Both the position numbers and the translations under genes were made by a program. From a virus, in the IMG/VR virus record IMGVR_UViG_3300045963_000153, positions 64,001 through 85,679 of that record: 21,679 bases of DNA, one strand, 5' to 3'. Positions 4,250 through 16,970 of this stretch are shown piece after piece (positions within the stretch are counted from its first letter, which is position 1; the number at the start of each line of letters is the position of its first letter). Below the pieces are notes generated by a model. It did not search any database, was not told where the DNA came from, and saw only the letters and a program-made list of their open reading frames with translations.

Positions 4250-6015
4250 AAGAACTAGAACATTTATCATCTAAAGATTTAGACCGTTTATTAAATTCTG
4301 GAAAAGAAGAAGCTCCAAGTATTGCACCAGTTGTAATACCCGAGCATTCTGAATTACCAACACCAGAACAAAAAGATCCCGGTCTTGTTCATGATCTTTT
4401 ATTAAATGCTGGTCAGGGTGCTACTCTTGGATTTGGTGATGAAATTTTAGGTGGAGTACAGGCTCTTGCTAATACTGCCAGTGGTAAATCTAAATTAGAA
4501 AATTTACTTGATACATATCGTAAATACCAAAAAGAAAATGAGAAGGGTGTTGAAGAATCTTTACAAAGACATCCAGTATTAGGAACTGGAGCACAATTAG
4601 CTGGTGGATTACTTATTCCCGGAGCAGGAACGCTTGGAGCAATTGGTGAAGGTGCTACAGCATTACAAGCAGCAAAAACTGGTGCCAAAGCTGGAGCTGT
4701 AATGGGCGGTCTAGCTGGTATTGGTGGATCTAAAGAAACTCTTGGTAATATTCCCGGTTTATTAGAAGAGGGAGCTAAAGGTGCTGGTATTGGTGCTTTA
4801 ACTGGTGGAGCATTAAGTGGTATTTCTAGAGGTATTGGAAATTATGCAAGCAAAGTTGTTTCTGATAGTCCAGAATTAGAAAGAGATGTTACCGCTTTTA
4901 GAGAAGGATTAGCTGGAAATAAAACTTCAGGAAAAACTGGACCACAAACAATATTAGCTGATATTCGTGATAAAGTTAATAGTGCATCAGAACAAATTTT
5001 AAAACCAGCAAAACAAGCAGCAGAAGAGTATGGTAAAGCTGTTGAATCTGCTACAGGAACATTAACTGGAGATAATCTAGATAATTTTACAAATACTTTA
5101 ATTGATAATATTGATGTATTGCCAACAAAATTTAAACCAAAACAAACTGAAGATGGTGAATTTATTGTTAGGGGATTACCAGAATTAGAAAATATTCTTA
5201 ATGGTAACGGAACTGCTCGTGATTTAAAAACTCTTCAAATTAAATTGAGAGATCAACTTGGTAGCATGGAATATGGTGATGCCAATAAAGGTAAGTTAAA
5301 ACAAATTTTAGAAGAAACTTCTAACGGATTACAATCATTAATTCCACCAGAAAAACTTGCAGAATTAAATCAAAAATATTCTGGAGCATTTTCTATCCCA
5401 GAACAATTGTTAGGTAAAAAATTATCAGGAATTAGTTATAATGATAGAGCACCCGAAGTTCAAGATGCTTTAAATCAACTTGTTGGTAAAGTTGGATATG
5501 GTAACGTTCCAGGTCACGAAGCAAGACAAACACTTAATGATATTATTAAAACTGGTGTAGATTTTGCAAATAAAAATCCAGAATATCAATTTGATTCTAA
5601 AGGTGTAAATGATTTAATTAGTCAAGCTGGTAGAAAAATGGCAGCAATTGGGGCAAGTAGTGGTTTATCAGGTAAACTTGGTGCTGAGACTGGTAAAGTC
5701 AATCCATTTGAAGCAGTAGCAAATCTATCTAGTAATCGTGCTGGTTTTGCAAATACTATAGGTAGAATTGCATCAAGTCCAGTTAGTCCATACGGTATGG
5801 CTACGGCGGCAGAACCGACTTTACTTTCTGCAGCAAATACATTAAAAAATGTTCCGGGATTAAGTAAACTTGGACAAACTTTGGAAGATTCAATTAATAA
5901 CAAGAGCAGCGTTGCTAAAAATGCTGCAATGATGGCAATTATGCAAAATCCTGCAGCAAGAAAAGCTTTGGGAGTAAATATTAAAGAACAAGAACACGAA
6001 GAAGGAACTAAATGA
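4246..6015 (+). CDS. Glycine-zipper internal virion / DNA ejection protein
   Basis: A 589-residue protein whose ATG overlaps the previous stop as ATGA. Near residues 55-72 is a G-x-T-L-G-F-G-D-E-I-L-G-G segment, a pattern I associate with phage internal virion and DNA-transfer proteins. Residues about 115-200 are a long series of Gly/Ala-rich hydrophobic stretches (for example G-A-G-I-G-A-L-T-G-G-A-L-S-G), strongly glycine-zipper-like. The C-terminal two thirds is mainly helical with no recognisable catalytic motif. Together with the two proteins before it, it forms a three-protein set expected to be ejected and to assemble across the cell envelope. It could instead be a tail-tube or scaffold component. 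The membrane-active segments and gene order favour ejection. Confidence 0.68.
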   Translation: MKELEHLSSKDLDRLLNSGKEEAPSIAPVVIPEHSELPTPEQKDPGLVHDLLLNAGQGATLGFGDEILGGVQALANTASGKSKLENLLDTYRKYQKENEKGVEESLQRHPVLGTGAQLAGGLLIPGAGTLGAIGEGATALQAAKTGAKAGAVMGGLAGIGGSKETLGNIPGLLEEGAKGAGIGALTGGALSGISRGIGNYASKVVSDSPELERDVTAFREGLAGNKTSGKTGPQTILADIRDKVNSASEQILKPAKQAAEEYGKAVESATGTLTGDNLDNFTNTLIDNIDVLPTKFKPKQTEDGEFIVRGLPELENILNGNGTARDLKTLQIKLRDQLGSMEYGDANKGKLKQILEETSNGLQSLIPPEKLAELNQKYSGAFSIPEQLLGKKLSGISYNDRAPEVQDALNQLVGKVGYGNVPGHEARQTLNDIIKTGVDFANKNPEYQFDSKGVNDLISQAGRKMAAIGASSGLSGKLGAETGKVNPFEAVANLSSNRAGFANTIGRIASSPVSPYGMATAAEPTLLSAANTLKNVPGLSKLGQTLEDSINNKSSVAKNAAMMAIMQNPAARKALGVNIKEQEHEEGTK

Positions 6016-6721: not shown

Positions 6722-7358
6722 TATTAAATTCCTCGTTGTTTAATAGCATCATGCTACCAACATTATTAAAATACTTCGCAACACTTTCATCTACACAATA
6801 ATATTCTAATTCTTTGTCGTACTTAAATACATTTTTATGATCGATAAATAAAACCATTAATTGATCAAAAATTACATAAGAACAACTAGACTTTGATTTA
6901 GAATAACACCATTTGTCATATAGATTATATAAGTAAACTTTTTTTAAATTGTATTTACCAGACTTAATATTAAAAGCATCCATAAACGCTTTGATATGTT
7001 TTTGATAATGTTTACTTTTTGTTGGATTTTTAGATTTTTTAGTATTATCTGCAATCAATTTAATAATTATTGCTAGATTTTTATTGATATAAAATTTATT
7101 ATATTTACAAGGTAGGAATCTTTTAATCCTTGTAGTAACATTTTTATCGGTAAGTTTTAAACTACTTTTGTTTTTATAAGACCATTTACGAAATAGTTGT
7201 GTTAAAGCACTTGCTGTTATTTCATTATCGCCAGATTCAAGATTAAAATTAACAAGGAATGACATTACAGGATCTTCAACTTCAATAGTTTCAGAAGATA
7301 TGCCACTTATTGCATCTAATAACTCTGCTTCCGAATAAAGTTGCCGTTTATTATTCAT
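6681..7358 (-). CDS. Protein with two tandem winged-helix-like repeats
   Basis: A 225-residue protein not assignable to a named family. It contains an internal duplication: residues 34-66 and 125-157 align without gaps (F-L/M-x-x-F-N-L/I-x-S-G, then L-x-x-L-F/Y-x-K-W-x-Y), with 11 of 33 positions identical by eye. The L-Y-x-L-Y-x-K-W-C part resembles the winged-helix module at the C-terminus of P4-type and D5-type primases, which suggests DNA binding; this is inference. The C-terminal tail is basic (R-S-K-K-K-K). The start ATG overlaps the stop of the upstream homing endonuclease by 8 nt and lacks a clear Shine-Dalgarno sequence, so translation may depend on coupling. Confidence 0.6.
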   Translation of the reverse strand: MNNKRQLYSEAELLDAISGISSETIEVEDPVMSFLVNFNLESGDNEITASALTQLFRKWSYKNKSSLKLTDKNVTTRIKRFLPCKYNKFYINKNLAIIIKLIADNTKKSKNPTKSKHYQKHIKAFMDAFNIKSGKYNLKKVYLYNLYDKWCYSKSKSSCSYVIFDQLMVLFIDHKNVFKYDKELEYYCVDESVAKYFNNVGSMMLLNNEEFNNARSKKKKEENPE

Positions 7359-7860
7359 ATATAATTTTATTTGGAAAATTTAAACAAGCAAATTCCTTAA
7401 AAAATTCAAATGCAGCTTTATCATAAGCAATTGCCGCTTCTTCTGGTGTATTAAAATAACCCAAATGTTTGTTTATTAATCTAGCTTGCCAAGGTTTTTT
7501 TCTGTGCGTATCATTTTTTTTTCTAACACCTTTATACCCACTACTATTATCTTTTCTTTTTTTACTATTTGCGCTATTTTCCGAAGTAGTTGCTTCTCTT
7601 AAATTATTCCATTTGTTATTAGATCTGTTTCTATCTTTATGATCTACAGTTTTAGGCATTGATCCAGTCATATATAAAAAAGCCAATATATGTGCTGGAT
7701 ATCTTTTACTATCAATTGATATGGTAATATAATCACGGTCAGTTTTATAACTACAAATTTTTCCGGTATTTCTTCGTGTAAAAATACCAGTATTAGAATT
7801 ATAATCAATAACTTGTTTTAATCTTTTTTGTGTTAAATCATTTTTAGAATTGTATTCCAA
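7351..7860 (-). CDS. HNH homing endonuclease with AP2 DNA-binding domain
   Basis: A 169-residue protein when started at TTG 7860, which has a perfect GGAGG five bases upstream (7866-7870). An in-frame TTG at 7902 would add 14 residues but has no ribosome binding site. The N-terminal half is an HNH nuclease (HNH_3-like): H57, D73-H74, then N-N-L-R-E-A-T and further Asn residues. Residues about 107-163 are an AP2-type domain (S-G-Y-K-G-V-R, W-Q-A-R-L, G-Y-F-N-T-P-E-E-A-A-I-A-Y-D-x-A-A). HNH-AP2 proteins are mobile endonucleases that cut alleles lacking them and spread by repair. It overlaps the 3' end of the upstream gene by 17 nt and the next start by 8 nt, so it sits within a translated run rather than in an intron. 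Confidence 0.88.
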   Translation of the reverse strand: MEYNSKNDLTQKRLKQVIDYNSNTGIFTRRNTGKICSYKTDRDYITISIDSKRYPAHILAFLYMTGSMPKTVDHKDRNRSNNKWNNLREATTSENSANSKKRKDNSSGYKGVRKKNDTHRKKPWQARLINKHLGYFNTPEEAAIAYDKAAFEFFKEFACLNFPNKIIYE

Positions 7861-8287
7861 ACGAACCTCCAATTGTTTTATTGTTAAGCCCCCAAACTCC
7901 AAAAATTATTGGACCAATTAAATTTCTACTAATACTTGCACCATAAACTAACGTTGTAGTTCCTGCATCAATTCCTGCAAGTAAACTAATATTAAGGCTT
8001 GGTGTCATTGCAATTGTAACTTTACTACTATCTTGTTTAATATCAGTTTTAGTGGTAGAATTATCTTTTGTGCTAATATCCGTTTGCTTTGTAATAATCT
8101 TAGTACCATCTTTTTTAATAACAATGGTGGTTTTAGAATGATCTTCAGTTTGTTTTGTTTCTACTTTAATTTCTTTTTCAACAGTTACAATTTTAGTTTC
8201 TACACGAGCTGGTGTCATATATCGACCAGTAGCATAGGCAGCCCCAAGCAATGTAATACCTAGTAGTATATATAGTTTACTATTCAT
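7844..8287 (-). CDS. Membrane-anchored coiled-coil protein
   Basis: A 147-residue protein; its ATG overlaps the upstream stop (ATGAATAG) and AAGGA lies eleven bases upstream. Residues 4-20 (L-Y-I-L-L-G-I-T-L-L-G-A-A-Y-A) are a signal anchor. Residues about 27-90 are a charged, Thr/Lys-rich, periodic region (V-E-T-K-I-V-T-V-E-K-E-I-K-V). The C-terminal 50 residues are Gly-rich with beta-like hydrophobic strands, ending G-G-S-F-G-I-Q-F. The N-terminal anchor plus periplasmic coil recalls i-spanins (Rz), but the beta-rich ending is not typical. A role in envelope or lysis functions is possible. Function unknown. Confidence 0.6.
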   Translation of the reverse strand: MNSKLYILLGITLLGAAYATGRYMTPARVETKIVTVEKEIKVETKQTEDHSKTTIVIKKDGTKIITKQTDISTKDNSTTKTDIKQDSSKVTIAMTPSLNISLLAGIDAGTTTLVYGASISRNLIGPIIFGVWGLNNKTIGGSFGIQF

Positions 8288-8633
8288 CTTGTTTCTTTTC
8301 CTTTAACTTTGCTCGGCTTTCTTTTCTTGAACTTGCCTCTGCTGAAGTTTTAGTACTATGACATCTATCACATAATGCCATTAAATTTTCTTGTGGGCAA
8401 AAAAGTCTTTCAACAAACGAATCATATCCTTGCCAACCAAGGACAGTATCAATAACTGGAACTGTATGATCTACAGAAACTTTTTCTGATAATCTTGAAC
8501 ATTTTTTACAACGATAAAAGTCACCTTCCTTGGCTTCTTTTATTGCCAATGCCCTTGTCCCTTGATAAAGCCACAAACGCCTCAATGCACTTATGATTTT
8601 AGATTTGGGGATAAGTGGTTTTTTCTTAGGCAT
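8280..8633 (-). CDS. HNH nuclease with zinc-binding cysteines
   Basis: A 117-residue protein from ATG 8633, which overlaps the upstream stop as ATGCCTAA; a longer in-frame reading to 8684 is less likely. Basic N-terminus (M-P-K-K-K-P). Motifs: C42-x2-C45, D55-H56, C79, N83, and C88-x2-C91-H92, the ββα-metal HNH fold with a structural zinc site. The C-terminus is Lys/Glu-rich. This free-standing HNH type occurs in many phages near packaging genes, where some act with terminase (HK97 gp74 is the known example). It also resembles mobile HNH genes. No terminase is in this window, so the packaging role is untested. Confidence 0.8.
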   Translation of the reverse strand: MPKKKPLIPKSKIISALRRLWLYQGTRALAIKEAKEGDFYRCKKCSRLSEKVSVDHTVPVIDTVLGWQGYDSFVERLFCPQENLMALCDRCHSTKTSAEASSRKESRAKLKEKKQDE

Positions 8634-9147
8634 ATTTATATGTCTCATTATTAACCAAACGTCGAATACAATCTCTACCGACATTATATTCTCTAGCTAA
8701 AGATGCTTTATTTTTTCCATTTTTAAATTTTTGTCTAATTTCATTAGCTTGATTATTTGTTAATTTTGCGTTAGCACTATTTTCCCCTCTACTATGATTA
8801 TTTTTAAATAATCCAGTAGACATAGCATGTTGCATATTTTTTTTTCGATCGCACCATTCTAAATTTTCTAATCTATTATCAGACTTTATACCATTTTTAT
8901 GATTTACTTCTTTATATTTATTATTAATACCAAGAAAAGTAAAACAAACTAAACGGTGAATATATATTCGGTTTCTTTTATTATTAGAAAAAACATTAAC
9001 CCATAAATAATTTGATATATTTTGTATTGGTTTTAATACTTTAATTATCCCCGTTCTTTTATAATTCAAACTTCTAATATTTCCAAAATTGGAAGCTTGA
9101 TAATTTTCATAACCGGGAATGTTTTTCCATATTTCATTTTTAGCCAT
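8626..9147 (-). CDS. NUMOD4-HNH homing endonuclease
   Basis: A 173-residue protein; AAGG lies nine bases before ATG. Residues about 6-50 are NUMOD4-like (I-W-K-x-I-P-G-Y-E-N-Y-Q-A-S-N-F-G-N-I-R-S-L). The HNH core follows (H64-R-L-V, V-N-H83-K-N-G, N-x-L-E-N-L-E-W-C). Residues about 121-170 are a helix-turn-helix-like specificity domain (A-K-L-T-N-x-Q-A-N-E-I-R, L-A-R-E-Y-N-V-G, I-R-R-L-V). This is the standard layout of phage T4 SegA/MobE-like or SPO1-like mobile endonucleases. Both ends overlap neighbours by 8 nt at near-identical junctions (ATGGCTAA upstream, ATGCCTAA downstream), so the gene is inserted without disturbing the reading of its neighbours. Confidence 0.9.
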   Translation of the reverse strand: MAKNEIWKNIPGYENYQASNFGNIRSLNYKRTGIIKVLKPIQNISNYLWVNVFSNNKRNRIYIHRLVCFTFLGINNKYKEVNHKNGIKSDNRLENLEWCDRKKNMQHAMSTGLFKNNHSRGENSANAKLTNNQANEIRQKFKNGKNKASLAREYNVGRDCIRRLVNNETYKYA

Positions 9148-10201: not shown

Positions 10202-11020
10202 TTAAATTTTAGTTAATAATGATTTCTTTTTTGATTTTGTCAATAAATTTAATTTACCTGTAAACCAAGATCCACAAGATAAACATGTAAATTTTTGATA
10301 TTTACCAACTTTAGTGTAATGAAATCCACGTTTTTGAATTTTAGTTGTTCCACAATTACATTTAATATCAGTATCATCAGAGTATAATGAGAAGTTTAAA
10401 GTAGAATCCCAAGGTGATAGGTGGTGATATAATTCTTCTAATGATAAAACGTCCATTTCATTATAAGCTTGCATTTCTTTAAATGCATCTTGATTACCAG
10501 CAAGACATTCTTTCCAAAGATCAAATCCTTGAAACTTTTTTGTCTTCATTTTTTTATTCTTTGTACAAAGTTTTTTTGTCATCCACTCAAGTTTATTACT
10601 TGTAAATGCAAAATGTTTTTTAGCAATTTTTAAAGTATCAATATTTTTATGTGGGCTTGGTGGTTTCATGCCGTTCATAATAAAACGAGCATTAAGCTTT
10701 TTTAAATCAAAAGCCACGCCATTTTGGGTAAGTGTAATATCAGAATCATTTAATAAGTCCCAGATTCCTTGCAATAATTTTTTATCATTACGAATATCTT
10801 TTTCATTTCTTTGGTCTTGATACATAATTTTATTATGAGGACCATAAGTTACACCACTTTTATCTGTATAATATTTAGCAGACCAAGATAAAACTGACCA
10901 CTCGCTTTCAATTTGATTTAACGCAATGTTTTGATCAAATAATCCCCAAGTATAAGATACCAATGGACTAGTTTCAATATCAAGTACTAAAATCTTTAAT
11001 CCAGTATATTCTTTTTTCAT
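10202..11020 (-). CDS. DEDDy 3'-5' exonuclease with C-terminal zinc ribbon
   Basis: A 272-residue RNase H-like exonuclease. Exo I is D14-I-E16-T; Exo II is N100-G-V-A-F-D105 with L-N-A-R-F; Exo III is Y186-N-E-M-D190, the DEDDy variant found in DNA polymerase proofreading domains and in YprB-type nucleases. After residue 215 a zinc ribbon follows (C221-N-C223 and C246-L-S-C249). It is separate from the split polymerase's own intact proofreading domain, so it is an additional nuclease, perhaps for recombination, host DNA degradation or RNA processing. The ATG overlaps the upstream stop by one base (TAATG) with GGAG five bases before it, so it is co-translated with the metallopeptidase-like gene. 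Confidence 0.85.
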   Translation of the reverse strand: MKKEYTGLKILVLDIETSPLVSYTWGLFDQNIALNQIESEWSVLSWSAKYYTDKSGVTYGPHNKIMYQDQRNEKDIRNDKKLLQGIWDLLNDSDITLTQNGVAFDLKKLNARFIMNGMKPPSPHKNIDTLKIAKKHFAFTSNKLEWMTKKLCTKNKKMKTKKFQGFDLWKECLAGNQDAFKEMQAYNEMDVLSLEELYHHLSPWDSTLNFSLYSDDTDIKCNCGTTKIQKRGFHYTKVGKYQKFTCLSCGSWFTGKLNLLTKSKKKSLLTKI

Positions 11021-12799: not shown

Positions 12800-13363
12800 C
12801 TATAATTTTTGTAATACTAATTCTATTTCATATTGACCACGACCATGCTGTTCTGGTGGGTCTGTATAAAAATGTCCTTTATCATTATCTCTCATATGTC
12901 TAACCCTAAAACTATTAATTGGTAATGCATCTTCAAATTCTTTTAAAAGTGATGCTGGAGTAAAAAATACCTTATGATCTTCATTAAACCGACTGGGTTT
13001 GTCAAGTTTCTTTTCATATAAATCTCGATGAGGAACAACACAAATTATGTATGCCCCAAATTTAAGTACTCTTAACCAATCTCTAATTACCGCAGATCTG
13101 TTATCGATGTGTTCTAAAACATGTGATGAATAAACATAGTCTTGGCTATTATCTTCAAATGGTAAAACAATTCCATCATAATCGTCTAAAGTTATACCTT
13201 TTGCAGTGGGAAGAATGGGATGTACATTTTCAAGATATCCTTTATATCCAATATCTAAACCATTACCAAACATATATTCAGCAAAAAATCCATTTTGATT
13301 TTTATTTGCCCAAGTTTTTCTAGATTCTTGACCGACATTTAATCCCCAATTTTCATTTATCAT
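12800..13363 (-). CDS. Class I SAM-dependent methyltransferase
   Basis: A 187-residue protein of the Methyltransf_11 type. The SAM-binding glycine motif is G-N-G-L-D-I-G-Y (33-40). An acidic pair follows at D60-D61 after the second strand (G-I-T-L-D-D), and the post-II motif is S-H-V-L-E-H-I (80-86), common in small-molecule, glycan and ubiquinone-type methyltransferases. It lacks NPPY/DPPY or PC motifs of DNA methylases, so it is probably not a restriction-evasion DNA methylase. Its ATG overlaps the glycosyltransferase stop (ATGA), so the pair is coupled and may act on the same glycan. It ends its transcription unit; a promoter follows. Confidence 0.85.
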   Translation of the reverse strand: MINENWGLNVGQESRKTWANKNQNGFFAEYMFGNGLDIGYKGYLENVHPILPTAKGITLDDYDGIVLPFEDNSQDYVYSSHVLEHIDNRSAVIRDWLRVLKFGAYIICVVPHRDLYEKKLDKPSRFNEDHKVFFTPASLLKEFEDALPINSFRVRHMRDNDKGHFYTDPPEQHGRGQYEIELVLQKL

Positions 13364-14307
13364 TTTAATATCCTGTTAATTTGCTCTATCCATTTATTAG
13401 AAATTAATTGATCATTACATAAATAATCTTGATATGCACAAGTAGTAAAAGAATGTTCGTTTGGTGCAAAATTCATATTTGATTGACAATAACGACATTT
13501 AAGAGATTCATCTGGAACTACGGTATAACAACCTTTGCCCAAAATTCCATCTCTGTATGGTAATCTGTGGTACGGATCTACACTAGTAAATCCAACAATA
13601 ATTGGTGCTTTGCCCATTCCAGCTAAATGGATAAGACCATTATCTACACCAAGTACTCCAGTAGAATTATTCATAATAGCATGAGCTTGGAACAAATTTG
13701 TTTTATCAATTAAATTAATTCCATTTGAATAGTCGGCTTTAAAAGTTCCAATGATTGCTTGTTCTTTATATGATGGAGTATATGATTTACCAATATAAAC
13801 AGGCGTATATCCAATACTAACACAATAATCACTAACTTGTTTTACAATTTCTGGTTTAAAAACTCTAGTATCGCTAGTGTATCCTGTTGTAATAACAAAA
13901 TATTTTTCTGGAAGATTAAATTCAGAAACATCGATTGGATCTAATTGAATATAGTTTTTATACTTGTCTTCAACTGATCTACCAACAATTGATAAAAATC
14001 CTTGATCTGTAAGGTGTGATGCTAAATTTGTAATTTTGTGAACATATGGGCTACGAGCTAATAATTCGTCATTGTATTTACCTTCAGAGTTATTTAAACT
14101 TTCAACAGTAATCATATTATAATCTTCAAACACTTTTTTCGCCAAAGGTTTAAAATATTCATGTGTCCAAAGTTTTATTTCAATATGAAAATGATGATCT
14201 AATACAAATTTAACTGCTGGCAATTGTGCAATAGCATCGCCCAATCCACCTTGATGAAGAACAAAGTTAAAAGGCACTACTTCTAGTTTTGTTCCACTGC
14301 GATACAT
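13360..14307 (-). CDS. Glycosyltransferase family 9-like (heptosyltransferase-like)
   Basis: A 315-residue protein with GT-B fold signatures: N-terminal L-H-Q-G-G-L-G-D-A-I-A-Q-L-P-A (17-31), the GT9 pattern G-x-G-D, and C-terminal D222-N-G-L-I-H-L-A-G-M-G followed by P-I-I-V-G-F-T-S (235-242), the nucleotide-sugar site of ADP-heptose:LPS heptosyltransferases. Near the C-terminus is a cysteine cluster (C-R-Y-C, then C-A-Y and C-N-D), possibly zinc-binding. In a phage it may modify host LPS to block superinfection, glycosylate virions, or act on modified DNA; the sequence does not decide. The SD AGGAG lies 24-30 bases after the tRNA-Gln and is perfectly complementary to the 5' end of tRNA-Asn. 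Confidence 0.83.
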   Translation of the reverse strand: MYRSGTKLEVVPFNFVLHQGGLGDAIAQLPAVKFVLDHHFHIEIKLWTHEYFKPLAKKVFEDYNMITVESLNNSEGKYNDELLARSPYVHKITNLASHLTDQGFLSIVGRSVEDKYKNYIQLDPIDVSEFNLPEKYFVITTGYTSDTRVFKPEIVKQVSDYCVSIGYTPVYIGKSYTPSYKEQAIIGTFKADYSNGINLIDKTNLFQAHAIMNNSTGVLGVDNGLIHLAGMGKAPIIVGFTSVDPYHRLPYRDGILGKGCYTVVPDESLKCRYCQSNMNFAPNEHSFTTCAYQDYLCNDQLISNKWIEQINRILK

Positions 14308-14321: not shown

Positions 14322-14396
14322 TGGTAGGGGATGATGGACTTGCACCACCGTAGCTGGCATCAAAAACCAGTGTATTAGCTGCTATACGAATCCCCT
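14322..14396 (-). tRNA. tRNA-Gln (anticodon UUG)
   Basis: 75 nt with encoded CCA (14322-14324). Acceptor AGGGGAT/ATCCCCT pairs in 7 of 7. D stem GTAT/ATAC, anticodon stem CTGGT/GCCAG with loop TTTTGAT placing TTG at the anticodon, T stem GGTGG/CCATC. It reads CAA, and CAG by wobble. The elbow is unusual: the D loop (AGCAGCTA) lacks the GG pair, and the T loop is TGCAAGT, with G at position 55 in place of the usual U. Four bases separate it from tRNA-Asn, so both are probably cut from one transcript. Confidence 0.9.
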
Positions 14397-14400
14397 AAAA

Positions 14401-14475
14401 TGGCTCTCCCGATTCGGATCGAACGAATGACCTACTGGTTAACAGCCAGTTGCTCTACCTCTGAGCTACAGGAGA
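14401..14475 (-). tRNA. tRNA-Asn (anticodon GUU)
   Basis: 75 nt with encoded CCA (14401-14403). Acceptor TCTCCTG/CGGGAGA (one T-G pair), D arm GCTC-AGAGGTA-GAGC with the GG pair, anticodon stem ACTGG/CCAGT with loop CTGTTAA giving GTT, T arm ATTCG-TTCGATC-CGAAT. All canonical features are present. It reads AAC and AAU. It begins six bases after the stop of the polymerase C-terminal gene, so it is probably transcribed with it. Confidence 0.96.
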
Positions 14476-14481
14476 AAACTT

Positions 14482-15171
14482 TTATAATTCTACCAATAAT
14501 TTTTGATTTTTCTTTAAAGCATAATTAGGAAAAATCTCTTTAACTGGAAGAAAAGTTTCAAATCTTTTAGTAATCTTGAAAAGTTTTTCCAAGTACTTAC
14601 TAGGATTATATTGTCCTGAATATCTTTCTGTCAAGCACAAATCTTCATTTGGTAAAATAAAAACATATATTCTATCACCAGACCTATATTCAGATCCTTG
14701 AATAGCATCAATAATCTTTGTTTCATTTGTTCGTTCTGAATTAAAAGTAGTTGGGCTTAACTGGATCTTTTTACTCCACTGTTTAATGTCTTTTATTCCA
14801 TCTCGAACTTCTCTAATGAATTCATTATAAATATTCACCATCTCTGGTATTGGTTCATCTTTATACATTAAAGTATCTACCATTCGATTTAACATAACTT
14901 TTAATGCTGGTTCTAATGAAGCAGATTTAAGACTAGACCCTTTAATTTTAAGTTTACCTTTTTCATCTAACATTGCGTAATTTTTAGCTTTTAAAATCAA
15001 TACTTTAGAAAATACACCATCATTAGCAAATTTAATATGCTCAGGTAATAGACTATTAATTTCATTAATGAGCAATTGTTGTTCTTCTTTATCAAATGGA
15101 GTTTGATCTGGTTTACAGAACATAATGGAATCTGTATCTGCGTTTGTAATTACAAAATTATGTTGATTCAT
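14482..15171 (-). CDS. DNA polymerase family B, C-terminal part (motif C and thumb)
   Basis: A 229-residue protein starting just before motif C: T-N-A-D12-T-D14-S-I-M-F, the YxDTDS equivalent that supplies a catalytic aspartate. It continues with the K-x-Y motif K63-N-Y65 (I-L-K-A-K-N-Y-A-M-L), then I-K-G-S-S and a helical thumb region. It has no exonuclease, motif A or motif B; these are in the gene at 15441-16970. It must combine with that product for activity. The ATG overlaps the end of the zinc-ribbon gene by 14 nt. The split resembles the two-part polB of Methanothermobacter and the split gene 43 of some T4-like Aeromonas phages. Confidence 0.92.
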   Translation of the reverse strand: MNQHNFVITNADTDSIMFCKPDQTPFDKEEQQLLINEINSLLPEHIKFANDGVFSKVLILKAKNYAMLDEKGKLKIKGSSLKSASLEPALKVMLNRMVDTLMYKDEPIPEMVNIYNEFIREVRDGIKDIKQWSKKIQLSPTTFNSERTNETKIIDAIQGSEYRSGDRIYVFILPNEDLCLTERYSGQYNPSKYLEKLFKITKRFETFLPVKEIFPNYALKKNQKLLVEL

Positions 15172-15448
15172 TTAATACCTCTACCAGACCATCTGGAAAT
15201 TTAATTCTAACATGTTTATATTTATGCGGTCCAGTTTTCTTTTTTGGTTTCCATTTTAAATTTTCTTTTCTCTTTGCTGTATTTTGATTAATTTCCCAAT
15301 CGTGGCTTCCAGCATCGTCAAACCATAAACATTCAGCGCAACGTGGGCATCTATAAGTTACACCAATACCTACCCATCCACTAGCATAACCATAGCCATA
15401 ACCAGTTTCTAATTTTGTTACTTTTACATGACCGCAAGTATCAGACAT
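15158..15448 (-). CDS. Zinc-ribbon protein between the polymerase halves
   Basis: A 96-residue protein from ATG 15448, which overlaps the stop of the polymerase N-terminal gene (ATGTCTGA). Possible zinc ligands are C5-G-H7, C34-x2-C37-x2-C40 and H49. A Gly/Tyr stretch (G-Y-G-Y-G-Y-A-S-G-W) separates the first from the rest, and the C-terminal half is basic (K-W-K-P-K-K-K-T). It does not look like polymerase sequence and lacks HNH, GIY-YIG or LAGLIDADG motifs, so it is not an evident homing endonuclease. It may be a passenger, or a clamp or DNA contact helping to join the two halves. Function unknown. Confidence 0.72.
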   Translation of the reverse strand: MSDTCGHVKVTKLETGYGYGYASGWVGIGVTYRCPRCAECLWFDDAGSHDWEINQNTAKRKENLKWKPKKKTGPHKYKHVRIKFPDGLVEVLNEST

Positions 15449-16970
15449 TGACTTCTTCCTCAAATTCTGTAACTTCCATAAAATCACTTAACTTTTTTTG
15501 TGCTGCCCAATTAATAGTAAATTCAAGAATCTCTCTACCTTTAGCGGTAATAAATTCAGCACAAGGCATACTATTGAATAGCAAGCCAGAAGCCCCCATA
15601 AAGCCATAAAAGCTGTTTAGAATACCTTTAGCTGTTGTATCCATCTCTTTCCAATAGTTATCTCCAGTTTCTGCTGCAAGCTTTTTATACTCTAACCGCT
15701 TCTCTCTAAAAATCTTGACCATTTGAAGTAGATATGCTTTTGGATCTTTGTCGCTATCATATACTTCATATTGAATCATAATAGATGGATATAGTGCTGC
15801 CAAATCGATCTTAAAACAATTTTTATAAAGCCCCGGAACACCAAACGAAATTGCTCCTTGAAACTTCTGTGCTTCATCTGCCTTTGGTAACGAGTGACCA
15901 TCTTGTAAATATGCTCTTACCATCATTCCATTAATTTTACTACCACTTGCGGATAGAAGAATTTCTGTAAATGGTTTTGGCATCATTGGAGCCATATTAA
16001 AATATAGTGGCCCCATATAATCCCAAATTTTTACTGCATCTTCAGCATCTTCAACTGCATATTGTTTAATTTTAGCCCACTCTGTAGGATTTTTATAATG
16101 ATCCCTAATTGATCCGGCATCATAATATTGTCTGCCTTCTTTTTCAAACCCAAGCTGTTTGATCATCGGTTTCAAAGCATAACTTTCAATGCTTTTAGAA
16201 ACATCAAAACTACTTGCTAGAAAAAATGTATCTACAATTTCTCTACCATATATAGTTACACCTTTATATAAAAGTTCTCTGGTTCCATCTAAACGAAATT
16301 TAGAATCATAATTATTAAATTGTATTGTAGAATTATCTCTCCCCATTTTAAGTTCAGTTTCCAATGTATCACATCTGTTTTGCAAATATGGAAAGTCGAA
16401 AGTTAAAATATTATGACCAACAATTAAAGATGGATTACATTTTCTAACGTATTTACAAAAATCAATAATCATATCTTTTTCAGAATTATAATTATCATAT
16501 GCAAATAATTTATTTACTTGTGAGTTTTTATCTCTAAATGTTGTTGAAATTAATAAAATTTTGGCATCTTTATCTAAACCATCTAATCCTGTAGTTTCTA
16601 AATCGAAAGATAATAAACTAATCTCTTTAAATGTTAAATCTCGGAAAAAAGTAATTCCATCTTTTAGCATGAATGCTTCTTCATTATTATAACAAGAATA
16701 GATATCATTATTTCTGTTTATAGCACGAAATCTTTGCCAATCAGCCTTTTCTTTAAATTGATAACCATATTTATAATAAAGATTCCCACTCATACGAGCA
16801 GCATTCTTACTTAATTTATTATGAGATAAAACCCAATACCGATTGTCTCTAATTTCAGAATTGATATTACCATCTATATCTTGTATAAAGATTTCAGCAG
16901 TACCATCTTTAACTTCAAGACCAACAACTCGCCTTAAATTTGATTTACCATAGATAAGTGAATCATTCAT
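15441..16970 (-). CDS. DNA polymerase family B, N-terminal part (exonuclease, palm A, fingers)
   Basis: 509 residues from ATG 16970, which overlaps the upstream stop (ATGA) and has GGGAG eight bases before it. The proofreading exonuclease is intact: Exo I D123-L-E125-T, Exo II G-H-N187-x4-D192, Exo III Y304-x3-D308. Polymerase motif A is K-I-D389-L-A-A-L-Y394-P-S-I; motif B is K448-G-I-L-N452-S-F-Y-G. The protein ends about 50 residues after motif B, before motif C, which is in the gene at 14482-15171. The catalytic metal site therefore needs both chains. The last about 17 residues (from K-L-S-D-F) are acidic and may be a new tail. Replicative polymerase of the phage. Confidence 0.94.
   Translation of the reverse strand: MNDSLIYGKSNLRRVVGLEVKDGTAEIFIQDIDGNINSEIRDNRYWVLSHNKLSKNAARMSGNLYYKYGYQFKEKADWQRFRAINRNNDIYSCYNNEEAFMLKDGITFFRDLTFKEISLLSFDLETTGLDGLDKDAKILLISTTFRDKNSQVNKLFAYDNYNSEKDMIIDFCKYVRKCNPSLIVGHNILTFDFPYLQNRCDTLETELKMGRDNSTIQFNNYDSKFRLDGTRELLYKGVTIYGREIVDTFFLASSFDVSKSIESYALKPMIKQLGFEKEGRQYYDAGSIRDHYKNPTEWAKIKQYAVEDAEDAVKIWDYMGPLYFNMAPMMPKPFTEILLSASGSKINGMMVRAYLQDGHSLPKADEAQKFQGAISFGVPGLYKNCFKIDLAALYPSIMIQYEVYDSDKDPKAYLLQMVKIFREKRLEYKKLAAETGDNYWKEMDTTAKGILNSFYGFMGASGLLFNSMPCAEFITAKGREILEFTINWAAQKKLSDFMEVTEFEEEVNV

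What the first reader, a model, noticed from the sequence alone, without database searches (positions are those of the whole stretch)
14482..16970. Replicative DNA polymerase split immediately before motif C, with a zinc-ribbon gene between the halves
Seen: the gene at 16970-15441 carries Exo I-III, motif A (D389) and motif B (K448). The gene at 15171-14482 begins nine residues before D12-T-D14-S (motif C). Between them is a 96-residue Cys-rich gene; all three overlap by 8-14 nt in different frames. Known: PolB catalysis needs the motif A and motif C aspartates in one metal site. Split polB exists in Methanothermobacter, and split gene 43 in some Aeromonas T4-like phages. Inference: the active site is assembled from two chains, and the intervening protein, which has no homing-endonuclease motif, may be a relic, a passenger or an assembly factor.
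Basis: partly seen in the sequence, partly recalled or inferred. Interest (0 to 1): 0.75.

Follow-up and report, generated by a model that had tools for sequence, protein, structure and literature searches.

The report
Phage DNA polymerase split before motif C
This phage makes its DNA-copying enzyme as two separate proteins whose cut lies in the catalytic centre, and dozens of related uncultured phages show that the same spot is repeatedly split, often by selfish homing-endonuclease genes, so the extra gene found there is probably a passenger in a mobile slot.

Summary
A family B polymerase is encoded as an N-half (exonuclease, motifs A and B) and a C-half (motif C and thumb), with a 96-codon Cys-rich ORF between them. 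The three genes overlap by 8 and 14 nt.

It is not an error or a one-off. I found 24 non-redundant polymerases (29 contigs, window included) split at the same loop, and 33 fused relatives. The catalytic aspartates, glutamate and lysine are intact in all split forms aligned. Split and fused forms interleave on the tree; one clade of split forms is rejected (p-AU 3e-46).

The gene between the halves differs from phage to phage: a homing endonuclease in 7 of 24 (3 GIY-YIG, 4 HNH/endonuclease VII-like), unrelated small ORFs in 8 (the window among them), nothing in 9. Two phages 93-98% identical on both sides differ completely over about 1 kb holding the 3' part of the N-half, the insert and the first 50 codons of the C-half, as co-conversion at a homing site would leave.

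Best reading: a two-chain polymerase, split at a recurrent homing-endonuclease site; the Cys-rich gene is replacement cargo. Split phage polymerases with homing endonucleases are known (Aeromonas phage 25), but cut between motifs A and B. New variant of a known kind.

The parts
15441..16970 (-). N-half of the split family B DNA polymerase (509 aa): exonuclease domain, motif A (D389), motif B (K448)
   Evidence: Pfam DNA_pol_B_exo1 1.6e-16 and DNA_pol_B 2e-13; 40-50% identical to the N-halves of relatives; catalytic residues conserved
15158..15448 (-). Intervening 96-codon Cys-rich ORF of unknown family, in the slot that holds homing endonucleases in relatives
   Evidence: Open frame overlapping both halves by 8 and 14 nt with its own ribosome site; no homologue found
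14482..15171 (-). C-half of the split polymerase (229 aa): motif C (D12-T-D14), KxY motif (K63, Y65), thumb
   Evidence: Pfam DNA_pol_B positions 221-420, 2.6e-8; residues 4-119 align with KOD polymerase 532-647; 37-48% identical to the C-halves of relatives
15441..15448 (-). 8-nt overlap ATGTCTGA: start of the Cys-rich ORF and stop of the N-half
   Evidence: Read from the sequence
15158..15171 (-). 14-nt overlap: start of the C-half and stop of the Cys-rich ORF
   Evidence: Read from the sequence
15178..15182 (-). Likely Shine-Dalgarno site AGAGG of the C-half
   Evidence: Anti-SD pairing -7.1 kcal/mol in the 20 nt upstream
15456..15461 (-). Likely Shine-Dalgarno site GAGGAA of the Cys-rich ORF, coded within the acidic C-terminal tail of the N-half
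   Evidence: Anti-SD pairing -6.2 kcal/mol in the 20 nt upstream

Best explanation
The window encodes a replicative family B polymerase made of two translationally coupled polypeptides. The N chain brings the proofreading domain, motif A and motif B; the C chain brings the motif C hairpin and the thumb. The two assemble one metal site (inferred). The split lies at a recurrent insertion site of free-standing homing endonuclease genes just 5' of the motif C codons. Homing, or the gene conversion that goes with it, cuts the gene in two at a permissive loop. Later the endonuclease can be lost, leaving overlapping halves, or be replaced by another small gene. The window's Cys-rich ORF is such replacement cargo, or less likely a worn-down endonuclease, expressed with the polymerase operon but not needed for catalysis. 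Shown: the split, its recurrence, its position, endonucleases in the same slot of relatives, and one clean cassette swap. Inferred: activity of the two-chain enzyme, homing as the cause, and the dispensability of the Cys-rich protein.
For: Same split point in 24 non-redundant polymerases, 33 fused relatives. Catalytic residues conserved in split forms. Homing endonucleases between the halves in 7: GIY-YIG in L038, L057, L114 above Pfam cut-off; HNH/endonuclease VII-like in L021, L047, L065, L067. Split state needs 15 changes on the exonuclease tree, at least 7 forced by supported branches; monophyly of split forms rejected, p-AU 2.6e-46. L038 and L049: 93-98% identical DNA flanks, no similarity over L038 2200-3337 / L049 7167-8001, which spans the join and carries different inserts. 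Close pairs lose identity around the join only when one or both are split. C-half starts have stronger SD pairing than the equivalent place in fused genes, P=0.0018. Split maps to a helix-strand loop in a pLDDT 91 model of fused L014, which matches 9N/KOD polymerases. The window's phage carries three HNH genes of its own. Precedent: gp43A/gp43B of Aeromonas phage 25 co-purify and are active (PMC2988022).
Against: The window itself has no endonuclease between the halves, and its closest relative L020 is cut off before the split. Trees do not fix the direction (splitting versus re-fusion). The clean cassette swap rests on one pair; a second mosaic, L013, is not significant by AU test (p=0.33). 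Endonuclease cleavage at this site is untested. The SD test is not corrected for kinship, and a few C-half starts (L043, L049, L069) show no SD.
Confidence: 0.68

Rival explanations
1. The split arose by another event (stop-start overlap, frameshift or faulty removal of an element), once or a few times, and homing endonucleases and other genes later used the ready-made gap between the halves. Fused forms are partly re-fusions; the fused forms with a 30-45 residue linker at the same point would be their scars. This is the caution raised for Aeromonas phages 25 and 44RR.
For: Nine split loci have no insert, with halves overlapping by 4-14 nt. Seven fused relatives carry an in-frame linker at the same point (L018, L040, L056, L116, L119-L121). 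PMC2988022 notes that the seg endonuclease of phage 25 may have invaded an already split gene.
Against: Split and fused forms interleave with close fused kin such as L026/L042 and L024/L015, and outgroup polymerases are fused, so very many exact re-fusions would be needed; three short-linker fused sisters show no scar.
Confidence: 0.22
2. The Cys-rich protein is a dedicated third subunit or assembly factor of the split polymerase.
For: It is tightly coupled to both halves and has its own ribosome site. L037 and L069 share another Cys-rich ORF in the slot (39% identical).
Against: No relative has this protein. Nine split polymerases have no gene there and others have unrelated genes or endonucleases.
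Confidence: 0.06
3. The insert is spliced out: an intron, an intein or a translational bypass restores one polypeptide.
For: Introns and split inteins in phage and archaeal PolB genes are known (PMC10189870, PMC2993671, PMC6892783).
Against: No intron family matches in the window region (E<=1) or in 12 relatives at gathering score. No intein domain at the split; the only one found is elsewhere, in L069. Nine split loci have almost nothing between the halves. C-halves have their own starts and SD.
Confidence: 0.03
4. Sequencing or assembly error, or a dead gene in the window.
For: All sequences are uncultured metagenomic contigs.
Against: The same split occurs in 29 contigs from many datasets, with intact catalytic residues and start codons. 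The window and L020 N-halves show dN/dS about 0.10, although dS is near saturation.
Confidence: 0.01

Closest known systems
Split gene 43 (gp43A/gp43B) of Aeromonas phages 44RR and 25, the latter with the homing endonuclease seg43 between the halves
   Same: Phage family B replicative polymerase in two adjacent genes, with a homing endonuclease in one relative and not in another; the two chains of phage 25 co-purify and are active (PMC2988022; records).
   Different: The 44RR cut lies between motif A (in 43A) and motif B (in 43B, residue 47); here A and B stay together and only motif C is separated. Unrelated lineage. Here the split is recurrent, interleaved with fused forms, and its slot also holds non-endonuclease genes.
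Genes split by free-standing homing endonucleases: nrdA of Aeromonas phage Aeh1 (mobE), topoisomerase gene of T4 (mobA)
   Same: An endonuclease gene inserted in an essential gene, leaving two separately made chains that form a working enzyme (PMC2988022).
   Different: Different enzymes; here three endonuclease types and several unrelated genes occupy one site in a single polymerase family.
Split-intein PolB such as PolB16 OarG, and the split PolB of phage MIJ3 with an intein and HNH endonuclease
   Same: PolB gene broken near motif C, with mobile elements (PMC10189870, PMC6892783). PolB16 extein residues are SGDTD/S.
   Different: Those are rejoined by protein splicing; no intein domain is present at this split, and the cut is 11 residues upstream of the motif C aspartate.
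Split PolB of Methanobacteriales (Methanothermobacter thermautotrophicus) and Nanoarchaeum equitans
   Same: Two-gene archaeal PolB, thought to derive from faulty intein excision or joined by trans-splicing (PMC4104785).
   Different: Archaeal cellular polymerases; exact cut site of the Methanothermobacter enzyme not checked here; no homing endonuclease cassette.
Split DNA polymerase of OM43 phages MEP401 and MEP402
   Same: Phage DNA polymerase split in two with a small unknown ORF between (PMC10580990).
   Different: Unrelated, Zobellviridae-like phages; polymerase family and cut site not compared here.

Membership tests
Family B DNA polymerase (replicative, proofreading) | Exo I-III acidic residues, motif A Asp, motif B Lys and motif C DTD all present across the two chains | tested here: met
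   All present in the window; D123, E125, D192, D308, D389, K448, D12 and D14 invariant in 23 split and 33 fused forms
Family B DNA polymerase (replicative, proofreading) | PolB fold | tested here: met
   Model of naturally fused relative L014, pLDDT 91.4, matches 9N/KOD polymerases, Foldseek E 3e-34; the window's two chains were not modelled together
Family B DNA polymerase (replicative, proofreading) | Polymerase and exonuclease activity | not testable with these tools
   Needs protein
Enzyme split by a free-standing homing endonuclease | Homing endonuclease gene between the two halves | tested here: not met
   Not in the window; present in 7 of 24 relatives at the same site, so the claim is about origin, not about the present content of the window
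Enzyme split by a free-standing homing endonuclease | Uninterrupted alleles in related genomes | tested here: met
   33 fused relatives, several sister to split ones
Enzyme split by a free-standing homing endonuclease | Co-conversion of flanking sequence | tested here: met
   L038/L049 replacement tract around the join; one clear pair, L013 only suggestive; not testable for the window itself
Enzyme split by a free-standing homing endonuclease | Endonuclease cleaves the uninterrupted allele near the insertion site | not testable with these tools
   Needs cleavage assay
Split-intein polymerase | Intein fragments at the break | tested here: not met
   No Hint/intein match in the window's N-half, middle ORF or C-half
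Intron-interrupted polymerase gene | Group I or II intron between the exons | tested here: not met
   Rfam negative for the window region at E<=1 and for 12 relatives at gathering score
Zinc-ribbon protein (middle ORF) | Match to a zinc-ribbon family or a confident zinc-ribbon fold | tested here: inconclusive
   Cys-rich but no significant family match; model pLDDT 36

The most novel reading that the evidence does not exclude
In this uncultured phage lineage the join between motif B and motif C of the replicative polymerase is a dedicated mobile slot. Homing endonucleases and their replacements move together with about 0.8-1.1 kb around the join, so that selfish elements keep re-splitting the active site, shuffle its catalytic segment between phages and load new small genes into a tightly coupled essential operon.
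Probability: 0.45. Interest if true: 0.72.

Novelty: new variant of a known kind. Interest (0 to 1): 0.6.

Why it matters
It gives a natural series of about 24 polymerases cut at the same place in the catalytic palm, some with close kin in one piece. That makes two questions directly testable: how an active site tolerates assembly from two chains, and how homing endonucleases reshape essential genes. The natural split, fused, linker-bearing and insert-bearing forms are ready-made material for studying split polymerases.

Tried and rejected
Frameshift or sequencing error: rejected by recurrence in 29 contigs. Intron: Rfam empty. Intein or trans-splicing at the split: no intein domain there; the only intein found sits elsewhere, in L069. 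Identity of the Cys-rich ORF: Pfam, PHROGs, NCBIfam, PDB, phages, plasmids, IMG/VR and the fetched loci gave nothing; its single-chain model is useless (pLDDT 36). Cellular or prophage relatives: only 21-24% identical hits in species genomes. The closest relative L020 is cut off before the split and its record holds no C-half. L013 as a proven conversion tract: reduced to 'suggestive' after the AU test (p=0.33). L048 looked split but is a frameshift elsewhere (between motifs A and B) and was left out. dN/dS was mostly saturated and says little.

Full report
Observation. The three genes are as described. N-half 16970-15441 carries the exonuclease domain, motif A (D389) and motif B (K448); C-half 15171-14482 begins MNQHNFVITNADTDS; a 96-codon Cys-rich ORF 15448-15158 lies between, with overlaps of 8 and 14 nt. 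Pfam puts the N-half on the exonuclease and first part of DNA_pol_B and the C-half on the remainder (positions 221-420). Small corrections: the C-half starts 11, not nine, residues before the first motif C aspartate, and 'zinc ribbon' is a guess from Cys spacing that no library supports.

Relatives. Named phages offer only remote, fused homologues (Salinibacter phages, 27%). IMG/VR holds the real family. After removing copies I compared 24 split polymerases (29 contigs with the window) and 33 fused ones. The cut is always at the same point: the N-half ends after the helix following motif B (mostly ...WA[ST]GK...) and the C-half begins about 8-12 codons before DTD. The acidic and lysine catalytic residues are invariant in the 23 split forms aligned; N187 differs in one, and Y455 is F in a few split forms and one fused form. 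No relative above 24% identity appears in species genomes.

Slot contents. Of 24 split loci, 7 hold a homing endonuclease between the halves: GIY-YIG in L038, L057, L114 (Pfam above cut-off); HNH/endonuclease VII-like in L021, L067, L047, L065 (best PHROGs E from 4e-17 to 1e-9). Eight hold one or more other ORFs (window 96 aa; L004 71+52; L034 48; L037 three ORFs; L043 46; L049 113; L069 three ORFs; L070 77). Nine hold none: eight with halves overlapping by 4-14 nt, and L053 with a 32-nt gap. The inserted genes mostly overlap the halves by a few nucleotides, endonuclease or not. Homologues of these endonucleases also lie elsewhere near these polymerases (14 other places by my count in the fetched loci), and the window's phage has three HNH-type genes at 7351-9147. 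L069 is the extreme: its C-half is cut a second time by a GIY-YIG gene, and its N-half has a LAGLIDADG intein.

Evolution. Split and fused forms are interleaved. On the exonuclease part alone, away from the join, the split state needs 15 changes, at least 7 forced by well supported branches, and one clade of split forms is rejected at p-AU 2.6e-46. Close split/fused kin include L026/L042, L024/L015, L013/L014+L029+L031 and L009+L034/L036+L068. The trees do not fix the direction; fused outgroups favour repeated splitting.

Cassette exchange. L038 and L049 come from nearly the same phage: 93.5% DNA identity upstream and 96-98% downstream. In between, L038 2200-3337 and L049 7167-8001 share no detectable similarity. 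That stretch starts near motif A in the N-half, includes the insert (GIY-YIG in one, a 113-aa ORF in the other) and ends 50 codons into the C-half, after which the proteins are again identical. Holding L038 and L049 together in the A-B segment tree gives p-AU 0.043. In close pairs generally, fused-fused identity stays 0.89 just 5' and 0.70 just 3' of the join, against 0.62 and 0.49 for split-fused (few pairs, not all independent). A similar mosaic in L013 has 99% branch support but AU p=0.33, so I count it as suggestive only. This is the pattern expected of homing with co-conversion; ordinary recombination at a hotspot is not excluded.

Mechanism. C-half starts have stronger Shine-Dalgarno pairing than the equivalent place in fused genes (P=0.0018, not corrected for kinship; window -7.1 kcal/mol), and in the window the ribosome site of the middle ORF is coded in the acidic N-half tail. 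So separate initiation by translational coupling is likely. A model of fused relative L014 is confident (mean pLDDT 91.4) and matches 9N/KOD polymerases. The split falls in its loop 492-494, between helix 468-491 and strand 495-500 leading into D500-T501-D502, so the C chain would bring the whole motif C hairpin to a palm sheet whose motif A strand belongs to the N chain. Assembly itself is inferred; the precedent is gp43A/gp43B of Aeromonas phage 25, which co-purify and are active (PMC2988022).

The Cys-rich gene. No homologue was found in any search. Nine split relatives do without any gene there and others have unrelated ones, so an essential structural role is unlikely. I read it as cargo that replaced an endonuclease; a decayed endonuclease is possible but unsupported. 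L037 and L069 share a different Cys-rich (CxxCxG) ORF in the slot (39% identical), which shows that non-endonuclease genes can settle there and persist or move.

Known versus new. Split phage polymerase genes and genes split by homing endonucleases are known (Aeromonas 25/44RR, Aeh1 nrdA, T4 topoisomerase; PMC2988022), as are split-intein PolBs at motif C (PMC10189870) and split archaeal PolB (PMC4104785). In 44RR the cut is between motifs A and B. I found no report of this lineage, of a coupled split between motifs B and C without an intein, or of repeated splitting with cassette exchange at one polymerase site; the literature library used is open-access only, so this is not proof of priority.

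Noticed in passing
L004 (contig IMGVR_UViG_3300045391_004184), e.g. 5628-5843, 6860-7135, 7334-7609: Six small ORFs within 13 kb end in the same C-terminal tag F-N-[ND]-K-M-[ED]-x-L-L, including the 71-aa ORF between the polymerase halves. The tag's DNA pattern matches 18 places in the 87.6 kb contig (5 exact, the rest with 1-2 mismatches), 17 of them on one strand; the backward control matches once. Not seen in the other related loci. Function unknown.
   Followed up: partly
L069 5980-11655: A polymerase in three pieces: LAGLIDADG intein in the N-half, three small genes at the motif C join, and a GIY-YIG gene cutting the C-half a second time.
   Followed up: partly
L018, L040, L056, L116, L119, L120, L121: Fused polymerases with an in-frame linker of about 17-45 residues at exactly the split point; possible scars of re-fusion or ancestors of split forms.
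   Followed up: partly
window 7351-9147 (- strand): Three HNH endonuclease-like ORFs (7351-7902 with an AP2-like domain, 8280-8684, 8626-9147) close together in the same phage.
   Followed up: no
window 10202-11020 (- strand): A separate 'DNA polymerase exonuclease subunit' gene (PHROG 403, 2e-93) in a phage whose polymerase has its own exonuclease domain.
   Followed up: no
window 12800-14307 (- strand): A glycosyltransferase family 9 (heptosyltransferase-like) gene next to a methyltransferase gene, in a replication region.
   Followed up: no
window 14322-14475 (- strand): tRNA-Asn and tRNA-Gln directly downstream of the polymerase C-half.
   Followed up: no
L013, L018, L030, L043, L049, L056, L120, L121: A divergent motif A to motif B segment, with sequences such as VDIKSxYPS in L013 and L018, is shared by these split and linker-bearing polymerases and groups them in the segment tree (99) although their exonuclease parts differ.
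   Followed up: partly
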